IMG/VR virus record: IMGVR_UViG_3300001838_000086 | Location: 1 to 58,154 of that record | Origin: a virus | Reading direction: 5' to 3' (one strand) | DNA: 58,154 nucleotides | Shown: positions 14,576-44,482 of the stretch, in pieces | How positions within the stretch are numbered: the first letter of the stretch is position 1 | How the letters are laid out: every line of letters starts with the position of its first letter | Notes under the pieces: model-generated | Seen by the model: only the letters and a program-made list of their open reading frames with translations | Told to the model about the DNA's origin: nothing | Database searches by the model: none | Program-made: the position numbers and the translations under genes

Positions 14576-14932
14576 CTAGTAGCCGAAAACTAGAAATTCA
14601 AATGTGGCATTCGCAATAGATGTCGTGTTTGCCATTTCCTCGAATCCACCAGCGGTTGTATTCAATGCTTCATACAACTTGATTTTCTCACTACTTTTGT
14701 CATATTTGACAATATAGTTAAGGCTTGAGGTTTCGGGAATCACTGCTACTAGGGTTGAAATTCTACCTTGCTTCAAATCGGCACTAACACCATTTGTTGC
14801 ATAAGTATCGCTTCCCCCAGCAGTGCATTTGATCTTGTAACATCTTAGTTTAGATGTTAAAGCAGACTGTAGTGACAATGTTTTGCCAACATTAGCTGCT
14901 GTCCAATCACTTACTGATGTGGTGATAGCCAT
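14576..14932 (-). CDS. small capsid-associated (decoration-like) protein
   Basis: 118 residues with beta-strand pattern and the segment STLVAVIPETSSLNYIVKYD followed by KLYEAL, a pattern common in proteins encoded next to HK97-type capsid genes. It starts at 14932 about 25 bases from a TATA box that also serves the opposite strand. It is probably a capsid-surface protein; experimental type unknown. Confidence 0.6.
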   Translation of the reverse strand: MAITTSVSDWTAANVGKTLSLQSALTSKLRCYKIKCTAGGSDTYATNGVSADLKQGRISTLVAVIPETSSLNYIVKYDKSSEKIKLYEALNTTAGGFEEMANTTSIANATFEFLVFGY

Positions 14933-14951
14933 AGTAAACTTAATTAATGAG

Positions 14952-14962
14952 GGATATATAAA
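14952..14962. promoter_or_regulatory. bidirectional TATA box
   Basis: The sequence GGATATATAAA reads as a TATA element on both strands. It is about 25 bases upstream of the minus-strand ATG at 14932 and about 35 bases upstream of the plus-strand ATG at 14994, so it probably drives both. Confidence 0.6.
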
Positions 14963-14993
14963 GTTGTGGATGGACTTTAAACTTAAAGTAGAT

Positions 14994-15113
14994 ATGAAAT
15001 TATGTCCAAAGTGTTATTTACCAGCATATGCAGCGGTTACAACCGAAAGCCCACGAGTTCATTATTACTGTCAAAATATGTTCTGTAGTATGTTAGGTAA
15101 AAGTATAGAATAA
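14994..15113 (+). CDS. small zinc-ribbon protein
   Basis: 39 residues beginning MKLCPKCYLPAYAAV and ending with CQNMFCSMLGKSIE; two CxxC/CxxxxC pairs suggest one bound zinc. The ATG at 14994 was chosen because it fits the TATA box at 14952-14962; longer in-frame starts run into the divergent gene. It is a plus-strand gene alone in a minus-strand late block, beside amoC. Function unknown. Confidence 0.55.
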   Translation: MKLCPKCYLPAYAAVTTESPRVHYYCQNMFCSMLGKSIE

Positions 15114-15121
15114 AAAAGAGT

Positions 15122-15685
15122 TTATGGGATTGCTCTAGAATAGAGTTTACCTTCTAATGCCATCTTATACATTTCTGCAACGTATGGGTTTTCACTTGGA
15201 GTTTCTGCACCAAGTTCAACCAGTCTAGCATACACTCTGACTACATAAGCCAAAGCACCCATGAAGGCAACTACAACTCCCATATTGAACATCCAATGGT
15301 TAGGCACTGCAAATATCTCTTCTACAAACCAAAAGTGCCACATTTCGTTAACACCAATGGTAAACATGGTTGCAAGATAACCTAGTATAGTCATCTTTAA
15401 TCCAGTGTTCATAGAGTTTCCTACACCTCTCAATATTGGTACTTTACGATCATAAATCGCAACACTACCCCAACCTAGAGGTAATGCTATGAAATGACTG
15501 TATAACCACCAATGAGCTGGTGTAAACGCAGAGTCCCTAATAGATGTTTGATGAAGTGAACCATCAACAAAGTTATCAACCTCTACAGAAGCAGCGGTTG
15601 ATCCCATCGCAATTACAATCAACCAAATTTTCTTCAGTCGTTGTATTTCCACTTCTTTTGGAATTAAGGCTGGAATCTGTGCCAT
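15122..15685 (-). CDS. amoC: ammonia monooxygenase subunit C (viral auxiliary metabolic gene)
   Basis: 187 residues, full length for the archaeal subunit, starting MAQIPALIPKEVEIQRLKK. It is an integral membrane protein of the ammonia monooxygenase complex, which oxidises ammonia to hydroxylamine. The copper-site pattern of the PmoC/AmoC family, D-x3-H-x12-H, is intact (D41, H45, H58 in DGSLHQTSIRDSAFTPAHWW), and several membrane helices are visible. The longer frame with 30 extra N-terminal residues was rejected, because archaeal AmoC begins at MAQ and a TATA box lies 25 bases before that ATG. Neither amoA nor amoB is present, so the protein must work with host subunits. No damage is seen, so it is probably functional. 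Confidence 0.97.
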   Translation of the reverse strand: MAQIPALIPKEVEIQRLKKIWLIVIAMGSTAASVEVDNFVDGSLHQTSIRDSAFTPAHWWLYSHFIALPLGWGSVAIYDRKVPILRGVGNSMNTGLKMTILGYLATMFTIGVNEMWHFWFVEEIFAVPNHWMFNMGVVVAFMGALAYVVRVYARLVELGAETPSENPYVAEMYKMALEGKLYSRAIP

Positions 15686-15704
15686 ATATACCATTAGTAT
15701 ATTA

Positions 15705-15715
15705 ATTATATAAGT
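15705..15715 (-). promoter_or_regulatory. TATA box of amoC
   Basis: Minus-strand ACTTATATAAT centred 25 bases upstream of the amoC ATG at 15685. The gene therefore has its own promoter and does not depend only on capsid transcription. Confidence 0.75.
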
Positions 15716-15737
15716 TTTAATTGTGACTAATGAGTAT

Positions 15738-16070
15738 TTAAGGATGTGGTGATGTTGAACATATTGGTTGAACATTCAGTCTTCGTTTTTTCTGATAGTA
15801 TTCTCTTTGATATTGTTTTATCTTATCCTTGTTTTCCTGATAGCGTTTTCTTTGAGATTCGTTTATTCTGTCCTTGTTTTCACGATTGTATTTTCTTTGA
15901 TACCTTCTTTGATATTCTTGTAACTTTTCTCTCATTTTATGATTGTTATAATATCTAAATAGGTGTCCACAGTTAGAACTACAAAACTTTTTTTTCTTAT
16001 AGTCGTTACATACATCACTTATTTCACTTTTACAATATAAACATCTTTTGATTGTTCTTTTCGATGACAT
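15738..16070 (-). CDS. zinc-binding basic repeat protein
   Basis: 110 residues from the ATG at 16070 (a TATA box ACTTATATATGG lies at about 16091-16102). The N-terminus has CLYCKSE...CSSNCGHLF, a C4 zinc knuckle. The rest is a basic helical repeat of about 13-16 residues (YQRRYQRKYNRENKDRI, NESQRKRYQENKDKI, KQYQREYYQKKRR). It is likely a nucleic-acid-binding protein. Such NKDKIK-type repeats are often fused to HNH nucleases in viruses but no nuclease motif is left here. Confidence 0.6.
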   Translation of the reverse strand: MSSKRTIKRCLYCKSEISDVCNDYKKKKFCSSNCGHLFRYYNNHKMREKLQEYQRRYQRKYNRENKDRINESQRKRYQENKDKIKQYQREYYQKKRRLNVQPICSTSPHP

Positions 16071-16131
16071 GACTATATTTGGCAACAGCCATATATAAGT
16101 GTTTAAAAAAAGGAAAATAAGGGAATGTAAT

Positions 16132-17352
16132 TTAGAGTTTAATGTCTCTAATCTTACCTTGTGATCTGAAGTGACGACAGACTGTTTCTCCCATAGTTCT
16201 AAACAATCCTTTCTCAACAAATGCATTGTTGACGAATGGATATGCTGGAGTACGTCTTGTTGCTTCGTAATACTCGGTTGGGATTGCGACTTGAATTCCT
16301 ATTCTTGGGTATCCATAACCTTCTGCATCGCTTGTGTCGAGTGCAAATAGTCTACCAATTTCTGATGAATCAGAAGCATTGGATGGTGCATCCTTTGTTG
16401 GGATGAACGGAATACCATAGATAGAGTCAACATGAATTCCAACTCCAGTACCCTTAAAGGTCTGGATACCGTTTACATCTACTTGTACAAGTGCTTCACC
16501 GTAAGGATTTGCAATTCTTACAGAAGGCATATACAAGCCCTGAATTTCAGAGTATACTTCGTGTGAACCAAGGAATACGTTTGGATCTTTACCAGATGCT
16601 TTTCTGATCTTTCGTAGGAAAGTTCTCAGTGTATCATCAGTTAGAACTCCGTTTGTACCGATTGTTCCTGAAGCAGATTCTACGGTTGAGTCGAAGTCTG
16701 TACCTACATCCCTGTCAATTTTGTTCCAAGGATCATACCAGTTATTATATGAGCCGCCTAAGACGTCTTCTTCTGCATCTGCTGAAATAATTCTGTCCAA
16801 TGACTCAAAGTCAAGTGATCCAGAATAATCTGCTGCTGCGGAAGCTGCTTGTGATTCAACGTCAGCTAATAGCATTTTGTTCAGATTCTCTTTGTGCTGT
16901 ACAGCCATGAATAGTCTAAGTGAACCTAGACCACCCCAAATATCGTCTTTGCTGTGAGTTGCCATCCACTCCATAACTTCTGATGCAGAGAAAGCCAGTT
17001 GTGCTGTCTTTGGTCTAACATCTAGTTCTTGTAGTGTTGGTTTTACAGTTGCCGCGATAAGTCCACCTTCAGTTGTACCGCCCAATCCAGTATTATTGGA
17101 TGAGCCAGCATCAGCTAAGGCTGGGGCTCTTGCTGTAATTACACGCCAACCTGATTTATCCCAAGGATACTTTGGCAGAATGCCGAAAGCGTTTGCCTCA
17201 AGATTCAACTGAGCCCATGCATAAGCACCGAAAATGGCGTTAAAAGTGCCACTGGTTGCTGTAGTGATTGGTGCATCAGCTTTTCTAATCAGGTTTCGAT
17301 TGAATCCATAATAAAGTGCTTCTAGCTCGTCAATGGTTCTAATTTGCACCAT
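16132..17352 (-). CDS. major capsid protein (HK97-fold type)
   Basis: 406 residues, preceded by protease and scaffold genes and followed by small virion genes, which is the classical HK97 order. Features are a helical N-terminal part (RTIDELEALYYGFNRNLI), a central alpha/beta P-domain with a long spine helix (QHKENLNKMLLADVESQAA), and a C-terminal segment ending in TMGETVCRHFRSQG. The ATG at 17352 begins two bases after the scaffold stop; a TTG at 17361 in the same frame overlaps that gene and was rejected. Confidence 0.85.
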   Translation of the reverse strand: MVQIRTIDELEALYYGFNRNLIRKADAPITTATSGTFNAIFGAYAWAQLNLEANAFGILPKYPWDKSGWRVITARAPALADAGSSNNTGLGGTTEGGLIAATVKPTLQELDVRPKTAQLAFSASEVMEWMATHSKDDIWGGLGSLRLFMAVQHKENLNKMLLADVESQAASAAADYSGSLDFESLDRIISADAEEDVLGGSYNNWYDPWNKIDRDVGTDFDSTVESASGTIGTNGVLTDDTLRTFLRKIRKASGKDPNVFLGSHEVYSEIQGLYMPSVRIANPYGEALVQVDVNGIQTFKGTGVGIHVDSIYGIPFIPTKDAPSNASDSSEIGRLFALDTSDAEGYGYPRIGIQVAIPTEYYEATRRTPAYPFVNNAFVEKGLFRTMGETVCRHFRSQGKIRDIKL

Positions 17353-17354
17353 TT

Positions 17355-17924
17355 TTACCAAGCCTCACTCTCTGGTGTGTAGTACTTGTTCGTATAGAGA
17401 ATATTTCTTGCAACTAGGCTCAAGTCACCAGTCTCTCTTGCATCTTTCAAAACTAGATTGTAGTCTTGTGAAAATGACTTGTTGATTGTCTCAACAGGAG
17501 CTGTTGGTCTTGGAGTCTGTGTTGAAGTTTCAGCCTTTACTTGCATTGAAAGACCATTCTTATCTTTGCCATGTTCTGCACCATCAGCATCGAGTGCCGC
17601 TTGGACAGAGTTAGCATTGTATTCGTCTGGTGTTTTCACATCTGCACCTACATCTTCTCCACTTGTTCCTGATGGCTTCAGTGGGAAATCTGTTGGTTTC
17701 TCTAGAGCCTTCAATCGTTCCTCAACACTTTTAAGTGTCTCGGTAACTCCTTTTTGAGATTCTGCTAGTGATTGAATTACTTCAGTCACAGCCTCAAAGT
17801 TGGATTTGATTGCTTCTCTAAAAGATTTTTTGGCTTCTTTCTCTTCCGATTTGTCTTCGTCTTCTTCGTCTTTCTCTTCCTCTTCGGAAGGAGAGACTTT
17901 TTTCTCGGATTCTTTATCTACCAT
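17355..17924 (-). CDS. capsid scaffold-like protein
   Basis: 189 residues. The first 30 are almost only Glu, Asp, Lys and Ser (EEEEKDEEDEDKSEEKEAKK); then comes a predicted coiled coil (FEAVTEVIQSLAESQKGV, ETLKSVEERLKALE). Its place between the prohead protease and the capsid gene and the acidic coiled-coil composition are those of scaffolds. The C-terminus (SLVARNILYTNKYYTPE) may contact the shell. It overlaps the protease gene by 7 bases. Confidence 0.65.
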   Translation of the reverse strand: MVDKESEKKVSPSEEEEKDEEDEDKSEEKEAKKSFREAIKSNFEAVTEVIQSLAESQKGVTETLKSVEERLKALEKPTDFPLKPSGTSGEDVGADVKTPDEYNANSVQAALDADGAEHGKDKNGLSMQVKAETSTQTPRPTAPVETINKSFSQDYNLVLKDARETGDLSLVARNILYTNKYYTPESEAW

Positions 17925-26267: not shown

Positions 26268-26489
26268 CCTTTATATACCGTTATTATTGACATACTCCAA
26301 CAACAACCTTTATATACCCTTATTCCAGACCAGAACCTTTATATACCCTCAGTTCGAACATAACCTTTATATACCGTCACTTTAGAGTTGTACACGCGAT
26401 TCGTGGTGGGGTGGCGATACCTTTATATACCGTTAAAAAAAAATAAAAACCTTTATATACCCTTGTATGAGCCATAACCTTTATATACC
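26268..26489 (+). repeat. array of seven exact CCTTTATATACC core-promoter elements
   Basis: Copies begin at 26268, 26307, 26336, 26364, 26420, 26450 and 26478. Most intervals are 28-30 bases and one is 56, i.e. twice 28. Each is preceded by AA or TA and followed by CTT or GTT, forming AACCTTTATATACCSTT. The sequences between copies differ. The same string serves as TATA region of ordinary genes (for example TAACCTTTATATTTT before 44141), so this is an array of TATA/BRE elements and not a CRISPR. Degenerate copies follow at 26555 and 26711. Confidence 0.75.
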
Positions 26490-29687: not shown

Positions 29688-30197
29688 ATGAATATATTTG
29701 TGCTAGATAATAATCCCATATATTGTGCTAGGTATCATTGTGATAAGCATGTAGTTAAGATGATATTAGAATCTGCTCAGATGATATGCACAACACATAC
29801 AACAAATAAAAATAAAAATCTAAACTATACCATACCATACAAAGCAACACATATGAATCACCCATGCACTAAATGGGTAAGAGATTCATTAGGTAATTAC
29901 TTGTGGCTAATGGAATTAACTAAAGCATTGAATGATGAGTATAGATATAGATATAATAAAGATGTAGATCATAAGTCATGGTCTGCTATCAAAGATCTAC
30001 CGCTACCTAATATAAATAATATAGGTAGAACGTCTTGGGCTAGAGCTATGCCTATTGAATGTAAGATAGATAACACAGGTCAACGTGATACAGATGTGAT
30101 TGAATCATATAGAAACTATTACTCTACACATAAGAAAGATATACTATTCTATACTAAGAGAGATCAACCATCATGGTTATCACTAGGGGCGTATTAA
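29688..30197 (+). CDS. conserved viral protein of unknown function (HCDKHVVKM family)
   Basis: 169 residues. The N-terminus MNIFVLDNNP...YHCDKHVVKMILESAQMICT is a pattern I know from many tailed-phage proteins of unknown biochemistry; conserved Cys/His/Asp/Glu residues suggest an enzyme. SD-like GGGGGG precedes the ATG. Spread among bacterial phages suggests transfer between viral groups. Confidence 0.7.
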   Translation: MNIFVLDNNPIYCARYHCDKHVVKMILESAQMICTTHTTNKNKNLNYTIPYKATHMNHPCTKWVRDSLGNYLWLMELTKALNDEYRYRYNKDVDHKSWSAIKDLPLPNINNIGRTSWARAMPIECKIDNTGQRDTDVIESYRNYYSTHKKDILFYTKRDQPSWLSLGAY

Positions 30198-41919: not shown

Positions 41920-42192
41920 TTAAGGTGTATAAATGTATGAGCAACCACATTGACATTTATATCTAGATATATAATCAGCATTTGATAAGTCATATAAGAT
42001 TCTTTCAAAGACTCTACGTGTTGAGTTTGGACTAATTGCCCTATGTATTTCGTTCAAAGTCGTAGGTCTTTTATGGTCTTTGACATATCTGTATGCCTTA
42101 TATCTTAGAGTATCCTTTGGCTCTAACTTATGAATCTCCTTCAAGTCCTCGATACTATCTGCTTTGAGAAGTTTTCCACTGTATCTAGTCAT
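41920..42192 (-). CDS. winged-helix-like protein with C-terminal Cys cluster
   Basis: 90 residues from the ATG at 42192, which overlaps the stop of the phosphoesterase by 8 bases. RYKAYRYVKDHKRPTTLNEIHRAISPNSTRRVFERILYDL looks like a winged helix (shown in three parts: RYKAYRYVKDH, PTTLNEIHRAIS, RRVFERILYDL). The end CQCGC may bind zinc. Probable regulator or nucleic acid binder. Confidence 0.5.
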   Translation of the reverse strand: MTRYSGKLLKADSIEDLKEIHKLEPKDTLRYKAYRYVKDHKRPTTLNEIHRAISPNSTRRVFERILYDLSNADYISRYKCQCGCSYIYTP

Positions 42193-42985
42193 GACCGAAC
42201 AAGTCTCCTTTGTATGGATCAAATGTTATTGTGATTGTGCCAACCCTCTTTGCTTCTTTAGGATTGATTTCCACATAACTATCTACGCCCTTTTCATATC
42301 CTCTTAGGAATGTTCCTGTATTACCCATGAGAACTTTCTTCTCTACAGGTACGTTATGTTTTCTGTCATAACCTGTTCTTACTATTGGTCTTACCCATGT
42401 ATCATGGTTGTGACCCATCAGTACCAAGTCACAGTCAAAGTCACCAGTGATTGCTTTCATTCTGTTGACAGCACCACCTGCTTGAATACCAGAGTATCCC
42501 CCATGCATTGATAGTATGAGGTAGTTTCTGATTTCCTTGCCTTTGTGTTCAAATGTTAAACTTGTGTATGCAAGTCTACCCATATAAGGTAGGTCTAATG
42601 GTTTACAAAAGTCTGTGATGAATCTTTTCTGGTTAATGGTTTTCCATTCATGATTTCCAGCGTGAAGTCCTAGAGTCTTATGGGCTATAGGCTTCCATGA
42701 TTCTATGAAAGTCTCTGTTTGTTCTTCGGTTGTTAACATACGTCTGTCAATCGTTTCTGGATTCCAACGTTTGTCAACACCACCATTAGCATATGCCATT
42801 ACATTGTCAATGTAATCTCCCATTCCAATGACAATATAATCATCGTGTTTTTTTAGGAACTCGATGTTCTTCATATACTTGTCTACATCGCATCCCAAGT
42901 TACCCAAATGAATATCACCTAAAGGTCTTAGGTGTATGACTGAATCTTTCTTCGGAAGTTCTATTGTTTTGCGTATGCAGAACAT
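42185..42985 (-). CDS. calcineurin-like metallophosphoesterase
   Basis: 266 residues with all family motifs: GDIHLGNLG (residue ~23), GMGDYIDN (~55), GNHEW (~107), SMHGG (~154) and GHNHD (~188). Two-metal enzyme acting on phosphodiesters, perhaps DNA as in phage recombination/repair nucleases. TATA box at about 43005-43015 supports the ATG at 42985. Forms an operon with the winged-helix gene. Confidence 0.85.
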   Translation of the reverse strand: MFCIRKTIELPKKDSVIHLRPLGDIHLGNLGCDVDKYMKNIEFLKKHDDYIVIGMGDYIDNVMAYANGGVDKRWNPETIDRRMLTTEEQTETFIESWKPIAHKTLGLHAGNHEWKTINQKRFITDFCKPLDLPYMGRLAYTSLTFEHKGKEIRNYLILSMHGGYSGIQAGGAVNRMKAITGDFDCDLVLMGHNHDTWVRPIVRTGYDRKHNVPVEKKVLMGNTGTFLRGYEKGVDSYVEINPKEAKRVGTITITFDPYKGDLFGHD

Positions 42986-44140: not shown

Positions 44141-44482
44141 ATGAACGTTTCCGAAGTACTCGATACTGGAAAAACGTATGAGAAATCTGTACCACTTAAG
44201 GCTGGAGACAAACTAACTGTCCAGAACTTTAAGGTAAGATACGTTGAGGGATTGGGTTCGGATATTGCAGAGATTAAGACTACTCAGGGGATGAGACATT
44301 CCTTTGGTAAGACTATAATCGGTCAAGCAAAATCTGAATACTGGAATGACGTAGTGGAAAAATGTGTCCAGAAGGATGCATCAGATGGATTAGACGTTTG
44401 GGTAGTTGAGAGAGAAGCCGAAAAGACTGGCAGAAAAATGCTAGCTCTCAGTATGTTTGCACCCAAGCAAACTACTTCCTAA
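44141..44482 (+). CDS. hypothetical beta-rich protein (possible single-strand DNA binding)
   Basis: 113 residues (VPLKAGDKLTVQNFKVRYVE, DIAEIKTTQG, GLDVWVVEREAEKTGRKM). The strand pattern would suit an OB-like fold; a DNA-binding function in the replication region is only a guess. Strong TATA box AACCTTTATATTTT (44107-44120) with leaderless spacing to the ATG. Confidence 0.5.
   Translation: MNVSEVLDTGKTYEKSVPLKAGDKLTVQNFKVRYVEGLGSDIAEIKTTQGMRHSFGKTIIGQAKSEYWNDVVEKCVQKDASDGLDVWVVEREAEKTGRKMLALSMFAPKQTTS

What the first reader, a model, noticed from the sequence alone, without database searches (positions are those of the whole stretch)
14940..16110. amoC island inside the capsid gene block
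A full-length archaeal amoC with intact copper ligands (D41, H45, H58) sits between the small capsid-associated genes and the major capsid protein. It is flanked by two unrelated small zinc-protein genes, each unit having its own TATA box, so the island looks like a later insertion (moron). amoC in marine thaumarchaeal viruses has been reported, so the gene itself is not new; its placement and private promoters suggest expression independent of the late operon.
Basis: partly seen in the sequence, partly recalled or inferred. Interest (0 to 1): 0.72.

Follow-up and report, generated by a model that had tools for sequence, protein, structure and literature searches.

The report
Viral amoC keeps the host's switch
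A virus of ammonia-oxidising archaea carries a working-looking copy of an ammonia-oxidation gene just behind its capsid gene, and that copy (like its viral relatives) still has a short DNA signal found at the same place before this gene in almost all of the host archaea examined, which suggests that the virus borrowed the host's own control switch along with the gene.

Summary
The gene is real. An intact 187-aa archaeal amoC (15122-15685, minus strand) lies between the major capsid protein (MCP) gene and a 118-aa structural-block gene. Such viruses are already published (Ahlgren 2019, recalled and cited in papers seen here). The MCP/p118 junction is a variable slot: 16 of 87 distinct contigs carry amoC there, 71 do not. 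In other tailed viruses amoC sits elsewhere (three further contexts). "Own TATA boxes" are ordinary here, because neighbouring structural genes have them too.

The tools added three things. (1) 23 viral amoC rows form one clade against 80 hosts (100/99), at only 80-86% nt identity but 96-99.5% aa identity, so this is an old viral lineage rather than a fresh host capture. One alternative host grouping is not rejected (p-AU 0.098). (2) All viral copies share a ~75-nt upstream module at a fixed distance from the start codon. (3) Its 24-bp tandem quasi-palindrome also lies ~165 nt upstream of host amoC: it is the top-scoring 24-mer in 78 of 78 host loci, and 46 of 65 places in 120 genomes are at amoC.

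Best reading: a mobile amoC cassette that keeps the host's amo operator. The operator's function and the gene's role in infection are inferred.

The parts
15122..15685 (-). amoC, 187 aa, intact Cu-ligand residues D41/H45/H58
   Evidence: PF04896 E=1.4e-13; ligands in 103 of 103; aligned to 9cl6_C
15752..15775 (-). amoC box: two 11-bp quasi-palindromic half-sites (ATGTTCAACCA-AT-ATGTTCAACAT), homologous to the host amoB-amoC intergenic element
   Evidence: top PWM hit of the window, 19.7 bits; module nhmmer hit 15708-15780, E=8.8e-10, with the window's twin L001 among the training rows
15733..15741 (-). degenerate upstream TATA-like element (TTAAATACT; TTTATATACT in most viral relatives)
   Evidence: aligned module
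15707..15714 (-). TATA box CTTATATA at -29 of the amoC ATG (implies a leaderless or near-leaderless transcript)
   Evidence: same place (-29/-30) in 11 of 11 distinct viral sequences and in the 25 host sequences printed
15112..15117 (-). T-run (CTTTTTT) right after the amoC stop, possible archaeal terminator; a T-run near the stop is seen in all 11 viral copies printed (further off in L021)
15738..16070 (-). 110-aa Cys-pair / KYR-repeat protein, found only in near-identical relatives; its 3' end runs through the amoC box
14970..15113 (+). 39-47 aa Cys-pair protein (start 14970 or, more likely, 14994), convergent to amoC; also present in slots without amoC
14955..14962 (.). TATATA stretch shared by p118 (-) and the 47-aa gene (+)
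16132..17361 (-). major capsid protein, upstream border of the variable slot
   Evidence: phrog_24667 E=1.4e-27
14576..14932 (-). p118, structural-block gene, downstream border of the slot
   Evidence: synteny in 87 distinct contigs; phrog_26402 E=3e-4

Best explanation
The island contains a mobile amoC cassette: operator ('amoC box'), TATA promoter, leaderless amoC and T-run. It sits in a variable cargo slot between the MCP gene and p118 of a tailed virus of ammonia-oxidising archaea. Shown by sequence: amoC is intact and under strong purifying selection; all viral copies found group as one lineage and share one compact upstream module at a fixed spacing in four genomic contexts; the 24-bp box of that module is homologous in sequence to an element ~165 nt upstream of host amoC, between the divergent amoB and amoC genes. 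Inferred: the box is the binding site of a host regulator of amoB/amoC; the virus therefore runs its amoC under the host's amo control rather than as part of its structural operon; the extra AmoC (the membrane subunit with the copper ligands) replenishes ammonia monooxygenase and keeps energy flowing during infection.
For: Intact ligands and omega about 0.03: virus-virus median 0.034 in 31 of 55 pairs usable; host-host 0.023 in 1446 of 3160; virus-host 0.036 in 85 of 880. Published pN/pS of 0 and 0.13 for two archaeal-like viral amoC (PMC8115048, passages). Slot: 16 of 87 distinct contigs with amoC, gaps 57-2089 nt. 23 viral rows on one side of a 100/99 branch, 200 of 200 bootstrap trees. Module: cross-context identity 0.69 at -90..-76 against 0.21 at -105..-91; at E<0.01 nhmmer hits in viral loci are all upstream of amoC (26 rows, L191 and the window repeating L083 and L001). 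Exact degenerate box in 42 of ~2.9 million viral contigs, 14 of them 88-89 nt before amoC. Host: top-scoring 24-mer of the locus at -210..-120 in 78 of 78 loci, 0.83 expected, 0-8 with 50 column-permuted matrices. In 120 Nitrososphaeria genomes 46 of 65 places lie at -158..-176 of amoC; of 39 genomes without AmoC one has a match. Also at -190..-145 in 17 of 20 stretches taken from distant AOA and second copies.
Against: No expression, binding or infection data of our own. The binding protein is unknown. The box lies at -83 in viruses but -165 in hosts, so a regulatory effect need not be the same. The window's own copy is one of the weaker ones (38.5 bits; first half-site damaged and overlapped by the 110-aa gene). 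Protein and codon-position 1+2 trees do not recover viral monophyly (4 and 3 changes), and with RY coding support is 69. 19 of 65 genomic places are not at amoC.
Confidence: 0.66

Rival explanations
1. Recent host moron: amoC was captured lately from the present host and dropped into the capsid block.
For: Protein 97.3% identical to host L103; slot is variable; near relative L004 lacks amoC.
Against: Nucleotide identity to the nearest of 80 hosts is only 80-86% for all 23 viral rows; viral rows form one clade 100/99; P88 and G164, invariant in 80 of 80 hosts, are kept in 2 and 5 of 23 viral rows.
Confidence: 0.08
2. Several captures: the window/L083 group took amoC with its box from Nitrosotenuis/UBA218-like hosts, separately from the other viruses.
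For: Both carry the GTTCAAC/GTTGAAC box variant, seen in 6 of 78 hosts, 5 of which form one starred host clade that includes the window's nearest host. Holding them together is not rejected: dlnL 27.2, p-AU 0.098.
Against: 200 of 200 bootstrap trees keep viruses together; same compact box-TATA-ATG spacing as the other viral copies and unlike hosts.
Confidence: 0.15
3. The shared box is not an operator but a recombination or structural element (for example a crossover point with the host amo locus that helps the gene move).
For: It lies at the edge of the module where cross-context similarity stops.
Against: In hosts it is at a fixed place between two divergent genes (median 165.5 from amoC and 91 from amoB, 64 hosts), also in distant AOA, which fits regulation; on the amoC side it keeps a fixed spacing in viruses.
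Confidence: 0.15
4. amoC is transcribed with the late structural genes and the module is a relic.
For: It lies in the same orientation within the minus-strand structural block; the 110-aa gene now overlaps the window's box.
Against: Box and TATA keep sequence and spacing although synonymous sites are near saturation (pS 0.64 among viruses); amoC keeps the module at contexts outside the capsid block.
Confidence: 0.12

Closest known systems
amoC-encoding marine Thaumarchaeota viruses (Ahlgren et al. 2019; not held, recalled, and as summarised in PMC8115048 and PMC9083009)
   Same: Putative tailed viruses with capsid genes and thaumarchaeal amoC; the window and the 24 IMG/VR loci are of this kind
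   Different: No account of a conserved upstream module or of the host-type box was found in the papers searched; slot variability and alternative sites are described here from 87 contigs
MCP-adjacent AMG hotspot of T4-like phages (bacterial-like amoC next to gp23, PMC8115048, passages read)
   Same: amoC next to the MCP gene with its own promoter and terminator
   Different: Bacterial amoC, T4-like phage; here archaeal amoC in an unrelated MCP lineage, with a host-type box
Host amoB-amoC divergent locus of AOA
   Same: Same 24-bp box and TATA at -29/-30 of amoC
   Different: Box at -165 with amoB divergent in hosts; at -83, without amoB, in viruses
NitEve-E6 integrated element with AmoC (PMC6563490, passages read)
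   Same: Mobile element of AOA with amoC
   Different: Integrated soil element; not examined here

Membership tests
AmoC/PmoC (PF04896) | Profile match above the curated cut-off | tested here: met
   51.3 bits vs 26.7
AmoC/PmoC (PF04896) | Asp-x3-His-x12-His copper ligands (site name recalled) | tested here: met
   D41, H45, H58 in 103 of 103 rows; aligned to 9cl6_C
AmoC/PmoC (PF04896) | Assembles into active monooxygenase | not testable with these tools
   needs expression in an AOA
amoC-carrying thaumarchaeal tailed viruses | Capsid/tail genes and archaeal amoC on one contig | tested here: met
   MCP phrog_24667, tube PF18906, amoC on one 58-kb record
amoC-carrying thaumarchaeal tailed viruses | Infects AOA | tested here: inconclusive
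   only AmoC similarity and box variant point to a Nitrosotenuis/UBA218-like host
Recent host moron | Closest relative is a host gene rather than a viral one | tested here: not met
Host amoC operator (proposed here) | 24-bp tandem quasi-palindrome upstream of amoC, rare elsewhere | tested here: met
   window score 19.7 bits, first half-site imperfect
Host amoC operator (proposed here) | Bound by a regulator and alters transcription | not testable with these tools
   needs binding and reporter assays

The most novel reading that the evidence does not exclude
The 24-bp box (ATGWTWAWCAT-NN-ATGWTWAWCAT) is the operator of a dedicated, so far unknown regulator of amoB/amoC throughout ammonia-oxidising archaea. 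Viruses took it with amoC and keep it tuned to their host's version (the window and L083 carry the GTTCAAC/GTTGAAC variant of the Nitrosotenuis/UBA218 clade). A viral AMG would thus respond to the host's own ammonia-oxidation signal, and box type would mark the host of an uncultivated virus.
Probability: 0.45. Interest if true: 0.8.

Novelty: new variant of a known kind. Interest (0 to 1): 0.62.

Why it matters
Viral amoC in the sea is known, but how it is expressed is not described in the papers found here. A conserved box shared by hosts and viruses gives a direct handle on two open questions: what controls ammonia monooxygenase genes in archaea, and whether viruses plug into that control. 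The box is short enough to be used as bait for the unknown protein. The cassette's movement between unrelated tailed viruses and sites shows that viral amoC is more likely a shared viral gene pool than repeated host theft.

Tried and rejected
Composition: GC of the island does not stand out. Recent-capture reading: rejected on trees. A first tree labelled seven viral rows as hosts and gave 8 changes; corrected. Zinc-protein families: no trusted match for either flanking protein. AmoC in the 'phages' collection: no match. Module as a general viral promoter: no other hit at E<0.01 in the viral loci held. Regulon in hosts: a fixed 22-mer with up to 3 mismatches matched 9 of 12 genomes and the degenerate one mainly amoC, so a wide regulon is not supported. 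Box without amoC in viral contigs: 28 of 42 contigs plus 4 of 5 for the variant lack AmoC on the DNA held and show no window-type gene; taken as background, not examined further. Paper searches for the box or a viral amoC promoter; nothing describing it in those listings. Structure prediction and RNA-family tools were not used.

Full report
What is there. The window is a 58,154-base virus record (G000). On the minus strand 15122-15685 encodes a 187-aa AmoC (PF04896, 51.3 bits, cut-off 26.7). D41, H45 and H58 are present in all 23 viral and 80 host sequences compared and align with the corresponding D, H and H of solved bacterial AmoC (9cl6_C). Upstream in the direction of transcription lies the MCP gene (phrog_24667, E=1.4e-27), downstream p118, p90, p212 and the tail tube gene (PF18906). 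Between MCP and amoC is a 110-aa Cys-pair/Lys-rich ORF; between amoC and p118 is a convergent 39-47-aa Cys-pair ORF.

The place is a variable slot. An MCP scan of IMG/VR gave 273 relatives, of which the best 80 were kept; an AmoC scan gave 24 loci, several of them the same contigs. 91 loci hold both MCP and p118; four repeat contigs (L081, L086, L087, L094), leaving 87 distinct contigs. 16 have amoC in the gap and 71 do not. Gaps run from 57 to 2089 nt. Because only the nearest 80 MCP loci were kept, these figures are not a prevalence, and several amoC contigs are near-identical. Other cargo seen in the slot: small Cys-rich proteins, a 241-252-aa secreted coiled-coil protein, a 105-aa protein with HEIHH, a 2OG-Fe(II) oxygenase (PF13640) and a pyrimidine dimer glycosylase-like protein (PF03013). 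L004, with a 94% identical MCP, has no amoC but keeps a relative of the 47-aa gene.

Other places. In G001 (L083) the MCP-p118 gap holds no amoC; its amoC lies some 26 kb away, after a homologue of window 44141-44482 and before a homologue of the gene 42185-42985 (called metallophosphoesterase here from its motifs, recalled). In L096-L100, which have no window-type MCP on the DNA held, amoC lies between a 115-aa gene and a 137-aa gene near a terminase 38% identical to the window's in L097 and L099. L093 has a terminase of another family (phrog_675, E=4e-19). So amoC is found in at least three kinds of tailed virus.

Phylogeny. On 561 nt, 23 viral rows (several identical) are one side of a 100/99 branch against 80 hosts, in 200 of 200 bootstrap trees (one search had seven viral rows mislabelled as hosts). 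Nucleotide identity to the nearest host is 80-86%, aa identity 95.7-99.5%. P88 and G164 are invariant in 80 hosts but kept in 2 and 5 of 23 viral rows. Against this: codon positions 1+2 and protein trees need 3 and 4 changes with little support; RY coding keeps viruses together at 69 only; and holding the window group and L083 with the host clade L103/L104/L108/L138/L139 is not rejected (dlnL 27.2, p-AU 0.098). One origin is favoured, not proven. The MCP tree needs at least 5 changes of the amoC label (2 forced by starred branches). It puts the window with L005/L007 and L083's MCP on the other side of a starred branch, whereas amoC joins the window with L083 (100/99): the gene has moved between viruses.

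Selection. NG86 omega medians are 0.034 (virus-virus, 31 of 55 pairs in the usable dS range), 0.023 (host-host, 1446 of 3160) and 0.036 (virus-host, 85 of 880). PMC8115048 (passages read) reports pN/pS of 0 and 0.13 for two archaeal-like viral amoC.

Promoters. TATA-like octamers at -29 precede amoC and the 110-aa ORF, but the same is seen before neighbouring structural genes, and 31 of 84 ORFs reach the 95% background score (hand-set weights, uncurated ORFs). Private TATA boxes are therefore no sign of an insertion.

The upstream module. The 11 distinct viral amoC share a module from about -97 to -22: box, TATA-like element, short GC-richer stretch, TATA at -29/-30. Cross-context identity is 0.69, 0.66 and 0.74 in the three 15-column bins from -90 to -46, and 0.21 at -105..-91. 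A profile of it finds, at E<0.01 in the viral loci held, only amoC upstream regions. The 11 training loci and their near-identical copies match by construction; the window itself scores 38.5 bits (its identical twin L001 is a training row).

The host element. The box half of that profile finds hosts at about -165 of amoC. With a 24-bp matrix built from the 11 viral boxes only, the top-scoring 24-mer of each host locus lies at -210..-120 in 78 of 78 loci with enough upstream DNA (2 of 80 were too short); 0.83 are expected, 50 column-permuted matrices gave 0-8, and 75 of 78 exceed every background position. nhmmer gave 74 of 78. In hosts with a divergent amoB (64 measured; amoB recognised from a recalled motif) the box is 165.5 nt from the amoC ATG and 91 nt from the amoB ATG (medians); in viruses its centre is about 83 nt from the amoC ATG. 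In 120 genomes of the class (81 with AmoC) a degenerate 22-mer with at most one mismatch has 65 distinct places in 51 genomes; 46 places (43 genomes) are at -158..-176 of amoC, 19 elsewhere; of 39 genomes without AmoC one has a match. In 20 stretches taken from more distant AOA or second amoC copies, all hits (17 stretches) lie at -190..-145. In 2.9 million viral contigs the exact degenerate box is in 42, of which 14 have it 88-89 nt before amoC.

Box variants. Six of 78 hosts carry a GTTCAAC/GTTGAAC variant (a seventh, L182, was flagged by a chance match in its flank and set aside by eye); five of the six form one starred host clade, which includes the window's nearest host L103. In viruses the variant is in the window group and L083. 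This is a lead: it may show tuning to the host's regulator or a second capture.

Interpretation. The likeliest reading is a mobile cassette of amoC with host-derived control, stored in a cargo slot. Binding, regulation and benefit in infection are inferred. The supply of AmoC to keep ammonia oxidation going is the usual AMG argument (PMC8115048, passages) and was not tested here.

Literature. amoC viruses of marine Thaumarchaeota (Ahlgren 2019) are known; that paper is not held and is recalled and seen as cited in PMC8115048, PMC9083009 and PMC6563490 (passages). PMC8115048 also describes a bacterial-like amoC beside gp23 in a T4-like phage, with promoter and terminator. Searches (listings and abstract starts only) showed no description of the box; most subscription papers are outside this library.

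Noticed in passing
window 26270-26487 (+): Seven exact TTTATATA at 28-56 base steps in and after a short ORF: iteron-like or stacked promoters.
   Followed up: no
L007:4934-5656, L084:10707-11462, L093:5272-6360, L076:1097-1954(-): Secreted-looking protein with two conserved Cys in its N-part and a conserved WKxLAxSWYxVAMxQL end; next to amoC in two virus groups, elsewhere in others.
   Followed up: partly
L084:9597-9914, L089, L092 slot: 105-aa protein with a signal-like N-end and HEIHH motif between MCP and amoC.
   Followed up: no
window 29688-30197 and L016:3606-4103: Pyrimidine dimer glycosylase-like protein: in the early region of the window, but in the MCP slot of L016 (the window copy compared by eye only).
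   Followed up: no
L083:11394-11738: Fe-S cluster assembly protein (PF01521) close to amoC at the second site.
   Followed up: no
window 15738-15780: The 3' end of the 110-aa ORF reads through the amoC box, which may explain the damaged first half-site.
   Followed up: partly
window 15344: Second-best box-matrix hit (15.8 bits) inside the amoC reading frame; probably chance coding similarity.
   Followed up: no
L118, L122, L141, L146, L148: Deep marine group I amoC rows forming one clade; in L118 amoC stands without amoB/amoA beside it, and a box-like element is at -168 to -178 in all five.
   Followed up: partly
G063, G086, G101: An identical box-like site GATTAACATTGATGTTAATCCT away from amoC in three genomes: possible second target of the same regulator.
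   Followed up: no
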